The translations under genes and the position numbers were made by a program. Shown one piece after another: positions 19,234 to 60,387 of a stretch of DNA of 64,000 nucleotides (position 1 is the first letter of the stretch; each line of letters begins with the position of its first letter). Below the pieces are notes generated by a model that worked only from the letters and a program-made list of their open reading frames with translations, made no database searches and was not told the origin of the DNA. The DNA comes from Paenibacillus mangrovi (lineage in GTDB: Bacteria > Bacillota > Bacilli > Paenibacillales > Paenibacillaceae): NCBI RefSeq assembly GCF_022898935.1, contig NZ_JALIRP010000007.1, forward strand, positions 248,001-312,000, given 5' to 3'.

Positions 19234-19345
19234 AAGAAAAACGTCTATCGACGTACTTTCACAGAAGACAGACCGCTTTTGGATGTAGTTTTTCTTGCGA
19301 TTATAGAATGGTTCAGCTTCGCTGAGATTTAAATTCTATAATCTT
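19234..19345. repeat. Solo copy of the 110-bp structured repeat
   Basis: 112 bp related to the units of the array at 58657-59565. The first part (19234-19296) has the same AAGAAAAAC/GTTTTTCTT arms and a nearly identical interior. The second part is an independent hairpin with arms GATTATAGAAT (19299-19309) and ATTCTATAATC (19333-19343), an 11-bp perfect stem whose sequence differs from the array but is still paired, with an inner CAGC-TTC-GCTG stem. It lies between the ABC exporter terminator and the telA cluster, in the same orientation relative to the leftward genes as the array. Confidence 0.85.
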
Positions 19346-19378
19346 AAAAAACAAACCCGCCATGCATGATGGCGGGTT
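19346..19378 (-). terminator. Rho-independent terminator after the ABC exporter
   Basis: On the minus strand, AACCCGCCAT and ATGGCGGGTT arms with a 5-nt loop, then TTTGTTTTTT. It starts 11 bp after the exporter stop codon and directly adjoins the solo repeat. Confidence 0.9.
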
Positions 19379-43436: not shown

Positions 43437-44348
43437 CTAGCCTTTAATGCCCGATAATTGTATTCCCTCGATAAAGTAGGACTCCGCATACAGGAATAAA
43501 AAAACCATGGGAGCCATGTACAAGGCCGAAGCGGCAAAGCCGATGCCTCTTGCTTCTTTGTTGATCTGCGCAAGGTACAAGGACAGCGGCTGTTTATAGG
43601 AATCCTGCAAAAAAATGAGCGGCTGCTCGATCATGTTCCAATAATCGACGAATAACAGAACGATCAGCGCAGCCAGACCCGGTTTCGCCAGCGGAAGAAT
43701 GATCCGCCAGAAGATTACCCATTGTCCCCCTCCGTCCATCATCACGGCTTCGGAATACGCACCGGGAATATGGGCCATAAATTGCCGCATCATAAAGACG
43801 CCAAATGCTCCAAAGATGCCCGGCAGAATGATCGCCGACGCATGATTCATCAGCCCAAGTTTGTCTATGACCATATAGTTTGGAACCAGCGTGACTTGGA
43901 ACGGCATGAGCATCGTCATTAAATAAACCATGAACAGCTGATTTCTTCCTGGAAATCGGAGCTTGGCGAAGGCGTAAGCCGCTAAGGATGCGACGACGGC
44001 CTGCCCTGCCACGATAGGGATGACCATCATCGCTGAGTTCCAGAACATCTGCAGGAATTTGGTGGAAAACACCATCACCTCGGCATACTGCTCAAATGAT
44101 ATCCAATCCGGGATCAGCTTCAGATTGATGAACGAATCCTTGCCGCCTTTTGTAACGTCAATCATCTGTCCGATCAGGTCGTAGTTCCTCCCGATTTCCT
44201 GCTCGGTCATGACCGAGTTACTTATCGTCAGAAAGATAGGTGCAAGCATCACAATGGCTGCCATGCCTAGCAGCAGCGTCAGCACCAGCTTGGTAAAAGG
44301 TATCTTTCTCATGTAGTTCATGTAGTTCATGTAGTTCATGTAGTTCAT
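43437..44348 (-). CDS. Carbohydrate-type ABC permease, MalG type
   Basis: 303 residues, six membrane segments. The EAA loop is SEAVMMDGGGQWVIFWRIILPLAKPGL (about 190-215), and the tail SYFIEGIQLSGIKG is typical. The gene begins with four in-frame copies of a 9-bp unit encoding Met-Asn-Tyr, so there are five possible ATG starts three codons apart. The first has GGAGGGAGG upstream. It lies 20 bp after the MalF-type gene and 11 bp before the adaptor gene. Confidence 0.92.
   Translation of the reverse strand: MNYMNYMNYMNYMRKIPFTKLVLTLLLGMAAIVMLAPIFLTISNSVMTEQEIGRNYDLIGQMIDVTKGGKDSFINLKLIPDWISFEQYAEVMVFSTKFLQMFWNSAMMVIPIVAGQAVVASLAAYAFAKLRFPGRNQLFMVYLMTMLMPFQVTLVPNYMVIDKLGLMNHASAIILPGIFGAFGVFMMRQFMAHIPGAYSEAVMMDGGGQWVIFWRIILPLAKPGLAALIVLLFVDYWNMIEQPLIFLQDSYKQPLSLYLAQINKEARGIGFAASALYMAPMVFLFLYAESYFIEGIQLSGIKG
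44313..44348 (-). repeat. Four 9-bp repeats at the start of the permease gene
   Basis: ATGAACTAC is repeated four times head to tail over the start codon. Slippage would add or remove a start codon and three residues without changing frame. Confidence 0.95.
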
Positions 44349-55225: not shown

Positions 55226-55332
55226 TACGATAAGAGAAATGACGATTGAGGATTACGATAAGAGAAATGACGATTGAGGATTACGATCAGATGTATGCTA
55301 TAGCGGGGCATGACGGCGGAAGAGGATTTATC
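55226..55332 (+). pseudogene. Possible acetyltransferase remnant with a 28-bp tandem duplication
   Basis: On the plus strand an ATG leads into IREMTIEDYD, like the N-terminus of many GNAT acetyltransferases. The 28-bp unit TACGATAAGAGAAATGACG(...)GAT is present twice (55226-55253 and 55254-55281), and since 28 is not a multiple of three the first copy runs into a stop. The second copy continues as TIEDYDQMYAIAGHDGG and then meets the IS-end-like repeat. Too short for a firm family call. Confidence 0.4.
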
Positions 55333-57355: not shown

Positions 57356-58009
57356 TTACTTAGAAGCTGCAGACGTGGAAATCATGTCTCCCACCCGCTT
57401 CAGGATATCCTTCATGGATTCCGGATCATGGACGTCATATTCTTCAATATTTAAGCGCAGCACGGGGCAAGCGTCGAATTCGTTGATCCACTTGGAATAC
57501 CGTTCATACATATGCTCCCAATAAGTAACATCCGTTTGGATCTCCATCTCACGTCCGCGTTCCTTGATTCGATTCAGGATGGACGGCAGGCTGCCTTCAA
57601 TATAGATCAGAACATCCGGGTGCGGAAAATACGGTGTCATGACCATGGCATCAAACAGGCTGGTATATGTTTCATAATCTGTCTTGGACATCGTGCCTTG
57701 ATCCGCATGCATTTTGGCAAAAATCCCCGTATCCTCATAAATGGAGCGGTCCTGCACAAAGCCTCCTCCCATTTCGAAGATCTTTTTCTGTTCCTTAAAA
57801 CGCTCGGCAAGAAAGTAGATTTGCAAATGAAAGCTCCACCGCTCAAAGTCATGATAGAACTTCTCCAGATAAGGATTATGATCCACCTGTTCCAATGAAG
57901 TTTTAAAGCCCAACTGCTCGGCTAAAGCGGCGGTCAAGGTCGATTTACCCACTCCAACGGTGCCTGCGACTGTGATTATTGCATTTTCCGGAATAAGATA
58001 TTGGTTCAT
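57356..58009 (-). CDS. dck: Deoxyadenosine/deoxycytidine kinase
   Basis: Salvages deoxynucleosides to the monophosphates. 217 residues. P-loop TVGVGKSTLTAAL, the FERWSFHLQIYFLAERFKEQ helix that shapes the nucleoside pocket, the DRSIYEDTGIFAKM motif (Asp-Arg-Ser), and the lid RIKERGREMEIQ. It overlaps dgk by 4 bp (ATGA), the same pair and order as dgk-dck in Bacillus subtilis. The choice of dAdo/dCyd rather than dGuo follows that order and the DRS motif. Confidence 0.92.
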   Translation of the reverse strand: MNQYLIPENAIITVAGTVGVGKSTLTAALAEQLGFKTSLEQVDHNPYLEKFYHDFERWSFHLQIYFLAERFKEQKKIFEMGGGFVQDRSIYEDTGIFAKMHADQGTMSKTDYETYTSLFDAMVMTPYFPHPDVLIYIEGSLPSILNRIKERGREMEIQTDVTYWEHMYERYSKWINEFDACPVLRLNIEEYDVHDPESMKDILKRVGDMISTSAASK

Positions 58010-58629
58010 TCCATAAACTCCTTTATTTGAGTGGCGATCTCTTCAAAATGCTCTTTATTCTCAACGAAATCAACCACATCTCCATTAATGGTTATGATAT
58101 GGGTAGAAGGTTCATGTGCAGCCAGCGCGGTCATCGCAGCATCATAGTCTTCGATTAACTGCTGCAGATAGTTGTGATCGATGCCTTCCTCAAAAGTCCG
58201 CCCACGTTTAGCAATTCTTTTCAAAAGGGTATGAAGCTCTGCTCTAATGTAAATAATGATATTCGGTTTGGGCAAATCATCCGTAAGGACATGGTATATC
58301 TGCCGGTATTTTTCTCTCTCATTCCCTTTCAAGGTCCGATCGCTGAAAATGAGATTTTTGTAAATATGATAATCCGAAATGACAGGTTTCCCTTTATCGA
58401 TATACTCGCTGACGATGTCCTTCAGCTGCTTGTAACGATTGCAGAGGAAAAACATCTCAAGTTGAAAGCTCCAATCATCCATGTTCTGATAAAATTTATC
58501 GATGAACGGATTCTCTTCAACAATTTCCTTCATAATCGGAAGCTGTAATTCTTCCGCAAGCATCGAAGCCAGCGTGGTTTTGCCCGCTCCGATGGGCCCT
58601 TCTACTGCAATAAATGGCGCTAGTTTCAT
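58006..58629 (-). CDS. dgk: Deoxyguanosine kinase
   Basis: 207 residues of the same fold as dck. P-loop VEGPIGAGKTTLASML, the pocket helix MDDWSFQLEMFFLCNRYKQL, the YHIYKNLIFSDRTL region replacing DRS, and the lid RIAKRGRTFEEG. It starts at ATG 58629 after GAGGAGG and lies only 28 bp from the 110-bp repeat array. That array therefore occupies its leader or promoter region. Confidence 0.92.
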   Translation of the reverse strand: MKLAPFIAVEGPIGAGKTTLASMLAEELQLPIMKEIVEENPFIDKFYQNMDDWSFQLEMFFLCNRYKQLKDIVSEYIDKGKPVISDYHIYKNLIFSDRTLKGNEREKYRQIYHVLTDDLPKPNIIIYIRAELHTLLKRIAKRGRTFEEGIDHNYLQQLIEDYDAAMTALAAHEPSTHIITINGDVVDFVENKEHFEEIATQIKEFME

Positions 58630-58656: not shown

Positions 58657-59565
58657 AAGAAAAACGTCTATCGACGTACTTTCACTGATGACAGACCGCG
58701 TTTTAGATGTAGTTTTTCTTGCGATATCAGGATGCCTCTCTTGAAGTTTATACTTTCTGATATCTTAAGAAAAACGTCTATCGACGTACTTTCACTGATG
58801 ACAGACCGCGTTTTAGATGTAGTTTTTCTTGCGATATCAGGATGCCTCTCTTGAAGTTTATACTTTCTGATATCTTAAGAAAAACGTCTATCGACGTACT
58901 TTCACTGATGACAGACCGCGTTTTAGATGTAGTTTTTCTTGCGATATCAGGATGCCTCTCTTGAAGTTTATACTTTCTGATATCTTAAGAAAAACGTCTA
59001 TCGACGTACTTTCACTGATGACAGACCGCGTTTTAGATGTAGTTTTTCTTGCGATATCAGGATGCCTCTCTTGAAGTTTATACTTTCTGATATCTTAAGA
59101 AAAACGTCTATCGACGTACTTTCACTGATGACAGACCGCGTTTTAGATGTAGTTTTTCTTGCGATATCAGGATGCTTCTCTTGAAGTTTATACTTTCTGA
59201 TATCTTAAGAAAAACGTCTATCGACGTACTTTCACTGATGACAGACCGCGTTTTAGATGTAGTTTTTCTTGCGATATCAGGATGCTTCTCTTGAAGTTTA
59301 TACTTTCTGATATCTTAAGAAAAACGTCTATCGACGTACTTTCACTGATGACAGACCGCGTTTTAGATGTAGTTTTTCTTGCGATATCAGGATGCTTCTC
59401 TTGAAGTTTATACTTTCTGATATCTTAAGAAAAACGTCTATCGACGTACTTTCACTGATGACAGACCGCGTTTTAGATGTAGTTTTTCTTGCGATATCAG
59501 GATGCTTCTCTTGAAGTTTATACTTTCTGATATCTTAAGAAAAACGTCTATCGACGTACTTTCAC
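58657..59565. repeat. Tandem array of eight 110-bp units plus a partial ninth
   Basis: Units start at 58657, 58767, 58877, 58987, 59097, 59207, 59317 and 59427, each exactly 110 bp. A 29-bp partial unit ends at 59565. Copies are almost identical: units 1-4 have CCTC and units 5-8 CTTC at one site. Each unit has hairpin A (58657-58720 in unit 1; arms AAGAAAAAC/GTTTTTCTT, with an inner ACGTC-TATC-GACGT) and hairpin B (58723-58764; arms GATATCAGGA/TTCTGATATC with one wobble). No open frame runs through it and there are no unique spacers. A diverged solo unit is at 19234-19345. It lies between the FHA gene terminator and dgk. Confidence 0.95.
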
Positions 59566-59587
59566 ATAATCTAAAAAACAGACTTAC

Positions 59588-59597
59588 CTATTGTATC
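59588..59597 (-). promoter_or_regulatory. Candidate extended -10 promoter reading into the array and dgk
   Basis: On the minus strand TGATACAAT contains -10 TACAAT (59595-59590) with the TG of an extended -10 element. No good -35 lies 16-18 bp upstream. Transcription from here would carry the whole array as a leader of about 950 nt on the dgk-dck message. Confidence 0.4.
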
Positions 59598-59689
59598 ACT
59601 AGAGTTTATTTTCTCATAGTCACTTTACGCACCAATATATCGCGAATTCCTCTTCTGCCCAATCCCTGTTCTGAGGTCATTTCTGAATC

Positions 59690-59718
59690 AAAAAAAGGAC
59701 CCTCAGGGGCCCCTTCTA
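59690..59718 (-). terminator. Rho-independent terminator after the FHA gene
   Basis: On the minus strand, AAGGGGCCC and GGGTCCTT arms with a short loop, followed by seven T. It overlaps the last codon of the FHA gene. Confidence 0.85.
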
Positions 59719-60387
59719 CATCATTTCTCTTTTCATGAATACGCCTTTTTTATAAACGGATTTGATGACAAAGTGACGGCCCAGCTTCTTGTTCGTGCGG
59801 TAAATCAGTGAATTCACTTCATCGATTCCGACAAGCTCGGTGTTCTCCATGCAACGCTCCGGCCATACATGCTGCATGATTTCTTCTTTGGTCACGAAGT
59901 GATCCAAACGGCTGTGAAGGAGCTTAAACAGCTGGTATTCCTTTTTGGATAACGTAATATTGTCTGTTCCCACCAGCACACTTTGCAAATGGTCGTTCAA
60001 CCTCACTTCGTGCTCAAGCAGTTCGGAAATCAGGTATTCCCGCGTCTCTTCCATGTCACTGCTAATCTCCAGCTGCAGCTCTACAAGACCGTTAACCAGC
60101 GTCAAGGAGTCTTCGTAAGTCCAAAGGGTCCTCTGATGGGGAATCAGGCGCTGACCGTTCAGCTCGGTGCCGTTTTTGCTGCCCAGATCCTCAACATATA
60201 TTTCATTATATACACGGTAAATGCGGCAGTGCTGTTTGGATACCAGCTGGTTAAAAATAGCCAGAACTGCATGATTCATACCGGTATGTCTGCCGATGGT
60301 AATGCTCTTCCCTTGTTCCAGATAATGAAATGAACCATGACCTTTTTGGCCGGCTGTATCTACCACGATTTTGATGATATCCGGCAT
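59716..60387 (-). CDS. FHA-domain winged-helix protein
   Basis: 223 residues. The N-terminal FHA domain (about 15-105) has the phosphothreonine-binding signatures ITIGRHTG, LVSKQHCRIYRV and VEDLGSKNGTELNGQRL. Residues about 140-220 form a winged helix of the OmpR/SARP type (LSKKEYQLFKLLHSRLDHFVTKEEIMQHVW...DEVNSLIYRTNKKLGRHFVIKSVYKKGVF). There is no receiver domain, so it probably binds DNA in response to a phosphorylated partner protein, for example of a Ser/Thr kinase. It starts at ATG 60387 with a weak GAGAGA site. Its partner is not visible in the window. Confidence 0.85.
   Translation of the reverse strand: MPDIIKIVVDTAGQKGHGSFHYLEQGKSITIGRHTGMNHAVLAIFNQLVSKQHCRIYRVYNEIYVEDLGSKNGTELNGQRLIPHQRTLWTYEDSLTLVNGLVELQLEISSDMEETREYLISELLEHEVRLNDHLQSVLVGTDNITLSKKEYQLFKLLHSRLDHFVTKEEIMQHVWPERCMENTELVGIDEVNSLIYRTNKKLGRHFVIKSVYKKGVFMKREMM

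What the first reader, a model, noticed from the sequence alone, without database searches (positions are those of the whole stretch)
58657..59565. Array of eight near-identical 110-bp two-hairpin units in front of dgk
Seen directly: an exact 110-bp period, eight full units and a 29-bp partial unit. Each unit holds a 64-nt hairpin and a 42-nt hairpin. There are no unique spacers as in CRISPR, no open frame, and no adjacent mobile-element gene. Near identity implies recent amplification or gene conversion. The folded design suggests an RNA, a protein-binding array or a single-stranded DNA substrate. I do not recognise a published family.
Basis: partly seen in the sequence, partly recalled or inferred. 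Interest (0 to 1): 0.78.

Follow-up and report, generated by a model that had tools for sequence, protein, structure and literature searches.

The report
Terminator-seeking tiny mobile DNA repeat, amplified
The eight repeated units are a locally multiplied copy of a tiny, gene-less, apparently mobile DNA element, scattered dozens of times through this Paenibacillus-type genome, that tends to sit just after runs of T at gene ends; what moves it is still unknown.

Summary
The array is real: eight 110-bp units plus 29 bp of a ninth. The unit belongs to a dispersed family: 80 model matches at E<=1.5e-4 in this draft genome, 8 of them the array; 40 of 60 genomes (own included) at E<=0.01; 34 of 299 Bacilli at E<=1e-4. 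No Rfam match. Both outer stems keep pairing through compensatory changes. Copies insert without visible target duplication at two empty sites, in one orientation, beside T-tracts, about two in five behind a terminator-like hairpin. In single-contig genome G014, 40-41 of 43 loci have the structured strand as lagging-strand template. Each unit ends in hairpin plus T-tract, so it re-creates its landing site. Best reading: a non-autonomous, IS200/IS605-like (PATE-like) single-strand element, tandemly amplified in the leader of a deoxynucleoside kinase gene. The mover is unidentified: three carriers (G005, G006, G020) lack Y1, group II and IS110 hits alike. The exact number eight is unproven in a 32-contig draft.

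The parts
58657..59536 (-). eight tandem 110-bp units; sense strand (T-tract side first, H2 then H1) is the minus strand
59537..59565 (-). partial ninth unit, 29 bp of the H1 end
59566..59572 (-). ATAATCT, probably the other end (type-2 H2) of the same ninth unit after an internal deletion
   Evidence: sequence comparison with the solo copy; inference
59573..59578 (-). T-tract (A-tract on +) taken as the landing site in the kinase leader
   Evidence: unit-free leaders of relatives
58657..58720 (-). hairpin H1 of the first unit (outer stem AAGAAAAAC/GTTTTTCTT)
58723..58764 (-). hairpin H2 of the first unit (covarying stem)
58664..58677 (-). terminator-like ACGTC-GATA-GACGT followed by TTTTCTT at the unit's 3' end (nine such sites in the region, one per unit and one in the partial unit)
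59590..59617 (-). promoter-like site (ATGAGA, 16 nt, TACAAT with TG before) upstream of the array; one of 2 such sites found, shuffles give 3.3, so its weight is the similarity in relatives
   Evidence: similar by eye in seven printed leaders
58006..58629 (-). deoxynucleoside kinase gene whose leader holds the array
19234..19345 (-). solo copy with a type-2 H2 hairpin
19354..19378 (-). intrinsic terminator-like hairpin whose T-tract (19346-19351) abuts the solo copy

Best explanation
The unit is a small non-coding mobile element of about 108-110 bp that moves, or moved, by single-strand DNA transposition of the IS200/IS605 kind, with the enzyme supplied in trans. Shown: dispersed high copy; presence/absence at two sites without a visible target duplication; no terminal inverted repeats; one orientation relative to T-tracts, often terminator hairpin plus T-tract; conserved pairing in both outer stems; structured strand mostly on the lagging-strand template. 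Inferred: the A-rich strand at the foot of H1 (AAGAAAAAC) pairs with the element's own 3' end (GTTTTTCTT) and with the T-tract target, as the guide sequence does in IS200/IS605. Because each copy ends in hairpin plus T-tract it offers a new landing site; arrays then grow by insertion beside a copy and by unequal crossing over or slippage. The window array is one such expansion in the leader of a deoxynucleoside kinase gene, where every unit adds a weak terminator-like signal and may lower expression (not tested).
For: Copies: 80 matches at E<=1.5e-4 in the genome. Empty sites: ffh-rpsP junction contiguous in G020 and G014; obg-side terminator CGGCTTTTTTTAATA in G020 against CGGCTTTTTTTAA-element-TA here; no unit in the kinase leader of any of 80 related loci. 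T-tract (TTTT within 12 nt) on the H2 side 27/32 own and 21/33 other copies, against 6/32 and 2/33 on the other side; terminator-like hairpins 14/32 and 12/33 against 1/32 and 1/33. Further copies from divergent genomes: 29/46 against 6/46, terminators 19/46 against 0/46, flank starting AT 35/46. H2 stem 99.0% paired with both-sided changes at 6 of 8 pairs in 50 sequences; in 101 copies five of eight H2 pairs show three Watson-Crick types and the H1 outer stem covaries too (on an alignment fitted to the model). Replication: 40-41 of 43 loci co-oriented against 128/187 sampled ORFs and 13/19 IS110 copies. Resident IS200 (Y1) elements with readable ends: 6 of 6 abut, by eye, a terminator hairpin plus T-tract. 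Chimeric middle unit in L081 is what unequal crossing over gives. Rules of IS200/IS605: passages of PMC7290912 and PMC6006769.
Against: PF01797 (Y1) gave no match at E<=1e-5 in repeat-bearing G004, G005, G006, G020 and G037 (G006 is a single contig, the others drafts that may miss IS copies). Ends of the Y1 loci examined are not similar to the repeat (the only hit, L103, is repeat units lying beside an IS200). Lagging-strand bias also fits group II introns (8/8 in G014), and resident Y1 elements themselves are only 4/5. The guide idea fails for three copies with an AACAAAA foot whose flank reads TTTTCTT (L242, L243, L271). 17 of 46 copies lack TTTT next to them. In another control (same strand, far side) terminators reach 5/33. 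The inner hairpins of H1 are less well kept (76.1% and 87.9% of cells paired). One copy (L012) has TTTTGTAAAG on both sides, which could be a duplication. No movement was observed.
Confidence: 0.58

Rival explanations
1. A mobile repeat inserted into lagging-strand template DNA by a reverse transcriptase of class C group II introns or another RT, as a bacterial SINE-like RNA.
For: Class C introns also insert right after terminators and on the lagging strand (PMC8919778 passages); in G014 8 of 8 group II hits are co-oriented with replication; many copies lie downstream of a gene read in the same direction (by eye, not counted).
Against: GIIM domain gave no match in G000 itself and in G005, G006, G020, G037; no poly(A) tail seen; G-U pairs are not clearly favoured over A-C mismatches in H2 (7 against 6), which an RNA fold should show. 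Other reverse transcriptases were not searched.
Confidence: 0.1
2. A structured RNA or regulatory element under selection (terminator booster, mRNA-end stabiliser), copied by ordinary recombination rather than transposition.
For: Compensatory changes in stems; position downstream of genes and nine terminator-like sites in the array region against 0.9 in shuffles; G-T against A-C 13:4 in the H1 outer stem.
Against: Presence or absence between related genomes at single sites, patchy distribution (no match in 25 of 40 genomes by DNA), no wobble excess in H2 (7:6).
Confidence: 0.12
3. A classical MITE moved by a DDE transposase.
For: Short, high copy, no ORF.
Against: No terminal inverted repeats (ends AAGATATC and TTTTTCTT) and no target duplication at the two clean empty sites. 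DDE transposase families were not searched.
Confidence: 0.07
4. An IS110-family satellite guided by a bridge RNA.
For: IS110 elements lack terminal inverted repeats (recalled) and G000 has 11 IS110 hits.
Against: No IS110 match in repeat-bearing G002, G004, G005, G006, G020; IS110 copies in G014 show no strand bias beyond genes (13/19).
Confidence: 0.03
5. The eight-fold array is an assembly artefact.
For: Draft of 32 contigs, near-identical units.
Against: One-base difference splits units 4+4; arrays of the same family occur in a single-contig genome: 9 of 43 loci in G014.
Confidence: 0.08

Closest known systems
PATEs (palindrome-associated transposable elements, IS605-related) of Haloquadratum and Halanaerobium
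   Same: No terminal inverted repeats, near-terminal palindromes, no target duplication, too short for a transposase (PMC3119063 and PMC7290912, passages)
   Different: Ends not related to the resident IS200/IS605 elements examined here; T-tract/terminator target; forms tandem arrays; one A-rich foot could serve both ends
Resident IS200 (Y1) elements of the same genus
   Same: Insert directly after terminator hairpin plus T-tract, right end is hairpin plus T-rich tail (6 of 6 left ends readable, by eye)
   Different: Code for TnpA, about 0.76 kb, different hairpin sequences
REP/REPIN and CGTC-tagged REPs
   Same: Palindromic, intergenic, downstream of genes; CGTC REPs also lack a known transposase (PMC3733652, abstract and passages)
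   Different: 20-40 bp palindromes against about 110 bp two-hairpin units; CGTC here is internal to H1, not an end tag
Class C group II introns
   Same: Land after intrinsic terminators and on the lagging strand (PMC8919778, passages)
   Different: Ribozyme with RT; no maturase-domain match in the host genome
SPRITE/BOX repeats of pneumococcus
   Same: Small interspersed repeats; SPRITE is terminator-like with no TSD established; boxB forms tandem modules (PMC3049150, passages)
   Different: Different structure as described there; modular rather than whole-unit arrays; sequences not compared here

Membership tests
PATE (IS200/IS605-derived) | no terminal inverted repeats, no target duplication | tested here: met
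   two clean empty sites; L012 is a possible exception
PATE (IS200/IS605-derived) | subterminal palindromes | tested here: met
PATE (IS200/IS605-derived) | ends related to an IS200/IS605 transposon | tested here: not met
   nhmmer against 30 Y1 loci (without L103): no related ends; these are 30 of the 41 Y1 matches listed, and other Y1 elements of the order were not examined
IS200/IS605 mechanism | insertion 3' of a fixed short target | tested here: inconclusive
   T-tract on the H2 side strongly enriched but loose rather than a strict tetra- or pentanucleotide, and absent from 17 of 46 copies
IS200/IS605 mechanism | lagging-strand template bias | tested here: met
   40-41 of 43 loci in G014, 7 of 8 in G010
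IS200/IS605 mechanism | guide sequence at hairpin foot pairs with target and right end | tested here: inconclusive
   H1 outer stem covaries; flanks of three AACAAAA-type copies do not follow the guide, one (L240) does
IS200/IS605 mechanism | Y1 transposase available | tested here: inconclusive
   one Y1 gene in G000, no match in 5 repeat-bearing genomes
CGTC/GTAG REP | 20-40 bp palindrome with end tag | tested here: not met
   unit of about 110 bp with two hairpins
MITE | terminal inverted repeats and target duplication | tested here: not met
Group II intron | ribozyme core or intron-encoded protein | tested here: not met
   no Rfam hit in the window or on the repeats of six loci; no GIIM match in G000
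CRISPR | repeats separated by unique spacers | tested here: not met
   head-to-tail units without spacers
Rfam RNA family | score above gathering cut-off | tested here: not met
   window; six loci, where the only hit above a cut-off was a tRNA outside the repeat

The most novel reading that the evidence does not exclude
A self-landing single-strand DNA parasite: one short element whose 3' end is a copy of its own target (hairpin plus T-tract), so terminators act as genome-wide docking sites and every insertion makes another; it is spread by an enzyme that is none of three known movers without target duplication (Y1, group II RT, IS110), since three carriers (G005, G006, G020) show none of them.
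Probability: 0.3. Interest if true: 0.75.

Novelty: new variant of a known kind. Interest (0 to 1): 0.52.

Why it matters
It names a widespread repeat family of Paenibacillus-type bacteria, undescribed as far as ten literature searches show, with a clear landing preference; it links intrinsic terminators to single-strand insertion at the replication fork, and poses a testable question shared with CGTC REPs: what moves small palindromic repeats when no dedicated transposase is found. The array also gives a natural test of how stacked weak terminators in a leader change expression of a nucleoside-salvage gene.

Tried and rejected
Rejected: CRISPR (no spacers), Rfam RNA, a Y1 transposase with matching ends, group II introns, IS110. 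Phages: no match in the phage collection with one copy (L031) as query; the viral contig collection was not searched. Plasmids: the same copy found one Paenibacillus plasmid record (896,837 bp) with 14 places. L103 looked like a transposase flanked by units, but the same IS200 stands elsewhere without them (L115). First empty-site attempt at L012 was not clean: G020 carries another repeat there. At the obg-side site G014 also carries that other repeat and G005 is too diverged to judge, so only G020 gives the clean comparison. L193 is the only one of 80 kinase loci with a unit, away from the leader. AACAAAA-type copies were aligned for a second covariance model, which was not built. Literature: ten searches run; one search found no paper; six papers were seen as passages, none whole.

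Dropped rows: copies without a recognisable H2, the window array and L103 were left out first; then 30 of 95 contexts because another unit lay upstream. In one search, 3 of 49 were left out for the same reason, and contexts with N or short flanks were left out uncounted. In one search the 24 lowest-scoring of 131 aligned matches were left out (mostly overlapping opposite-strand matches) and duplicates joined, leaving 101; one of seven IS200 loci (L112) had no readable frame. The G014 strand test used the 57 rows printed, not all matches; genes there are ORFs of at least 120 codons picked greedily. In one search only 150 of 1839 first-look candidates were scored, so 80 is a lower bound.

Full report
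Observation. The array is as described: period 110, 8.3 copies, 99%; units 1-4 identical, 5-8 with one shared C-to-T change, then 29 bp of a ninth. After those 29 bp comes ATAATCT, the tail of a type-2 copy, so the ninth unit appears internally deleted. The unit folds better than nearly all shuffles.

Not local. BLAST finds 53 matches in the genome, array units and partial ones included. A covariance model from 50 copies finds 94 at E<=0.01, of which 8 are overlapping opposite-strand matches (seven in the array); 80 reach E<=1.5e-4 (my count of the list; 150 of 1839 candidates were scored), eight of them the array. By DNA 15 of 40 genomes have it, by model 40 of 60 at E<=0.01 and 34 of 299 Bacilli at E<=1e-4, 9 of 118 genera; each of these counts includes the window's own genome. 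The distribution is patchy. No Rfam family matches the repeat, and one copy as query finds nothing in the phage collection.

Anatomy. Read on the sense strand: T-tract, then H2 (AAGATATCAG...CTGATATC), GC, then H1 (AAGAAAAAC...GTTTTTCTT), usually followed by AT. H2 comes in at least two sequence classes, yet its stem is 99.0% paired and 6 of 8 pairs show changes on both sides in 50 copies; the H1 outer stem is 98.3% paired, the two inner H1 hairpins 76.1% and 87.9%. In 101 distinct copies five of eight H2 pairs show three Watson-Crick types and three show two, and the H1 outer stem also covaries (that alignment was fitted to the model, which leans towards its structure). G-T and A-C mismatches are about equal in H2 (7 and 6) and 13 to 4 in the H1 outer stem, so a transcript-level fold is not clearly favoured. 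The inner hairpin ACGTC-GATA-GACGT next to the T-tract is terminator-like; one search finds nine such sites, one per unit and one in the partial unit, against 0.9 in shuffles.

Insertion. In this genome 27 of 32 copies with a non-repeat flank have TTTT within 12 nt on the H2 side, against 6 of 32 on the other side; in other genomes 21 of 33 against 2 of 33; terminator-like hairpins 14 of 32 and 12 of 33 against 1 of 32 and 1 of 33 (a further control, the same strand far from the element, gives 1 of 32 and 5 of 33; shuffles 4 of 160 and 4 of 165). A second set from divergent genomes repeats this (29 of 46 against 6; 19 of 46 against 0). Two clean empty sites exist: ffh-rpsP, contiguous in G020 and G014, and the terminator after an obg-like gene in G020; gene names there are recalled from the sequences. 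Neither shows a target duplication; L012 might. In the kinase leader none of 80 related loci has a unit; seven printed leaders, P. dendrobii and P. dokdonensis among them, show promoter-like sequence, mostly a T-tract, and a ribosome site without the array.

Replication. G014 is one contig; GC skew of 20 evenly spaced samples changes sign between 3.30 and 3.66 Mb. Of 43 loci (57 printed rows joined) 40-41, depending on where the terminus is placed, have the sense strand running with the fork, i.e. as lagging-strand template; sampled ORFs 128 of 187, IS110 13 of 19, group II 8 of 8, Y1 4 of 5; in G010 7 of 8. IS608 and ISDra2 use the lagging-strand template (PMC6006769, abstract and passages). 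The bias alone does not tell Y1 from group II introns.

Mover. None found. Y1 gave no match in five repeat-bearing genomes, the group II maturase domain none in G000 and four others, IS110 none in five; G005, G006 and G020 lack all three. The resident IS200 elements nevertheless follow the same landing rule (6 of 6 readable left ends, by eye). So the mechanism is argued from anatomy, target and strand, not from a partner gene; a lost or unrecognised enzyme is possible, and other transposase families were not searched.

Array growth. In L081 the middle of three units has the H1 start of its one neighbour and the H1 end plus H2 of the other, the product expected from unequal crossing over. The window's 4+4 pattern fits successive duplications. 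Nine of 43 G014 loci are arrays, so arrays recur in the family.

Verdict. A new family of PATE-like small mobile repeats; the window array is an amplified copy in the leader of a deoxynucleoside kinase gene (PF01712). Family and insertion preference are well supported; single-strand transposition is likely; the enzyme and any effect on the gene are open.

Noticed in passing
L245 and L358 (G020, G014); one CCCCACAAAG at window 48214: A second, unrelated repeat (GGGGTCCCCGCAAAG...CTTTGT[GA]GGG) also sits directly after terminator T-tracts, at two sites where this genome has the 110-bp element; a 10-nt word of it occurs in 18 of the loci held then, several of them G014 samples.
   Followed up: partly
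L103, L105, L106, L115, L116, L119: IS200 (Y1) elements of these genomes abut terminator hairpins plus T-tracts at their left ends, 6 of 6 with readable ends, by eye.
   Followed up: yes
window 44309-44348: Perfect 9-bp tandem repeat TCATGTAGT, 4.4 copies.
   Followed up: no
window 55226-55291: 28-bp tandem repeat, 2.4 copies, 97%, upstream of an ORF with amidase- and deacetylase-like sequence (recalled).
   Followed up: no
window 59716-60387: FHA domain joined to a C-terminal transcriptional-regulator domain in one protein, upstream of the array on the same strand.
   Followed up: no
L025, L059, L061 and the window array: Several copies or arrays end with a stub of roughly 19-45 nt of the H1 end beside a complete copy, suggesting recurrent deletion inside units.
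   Followed up: no
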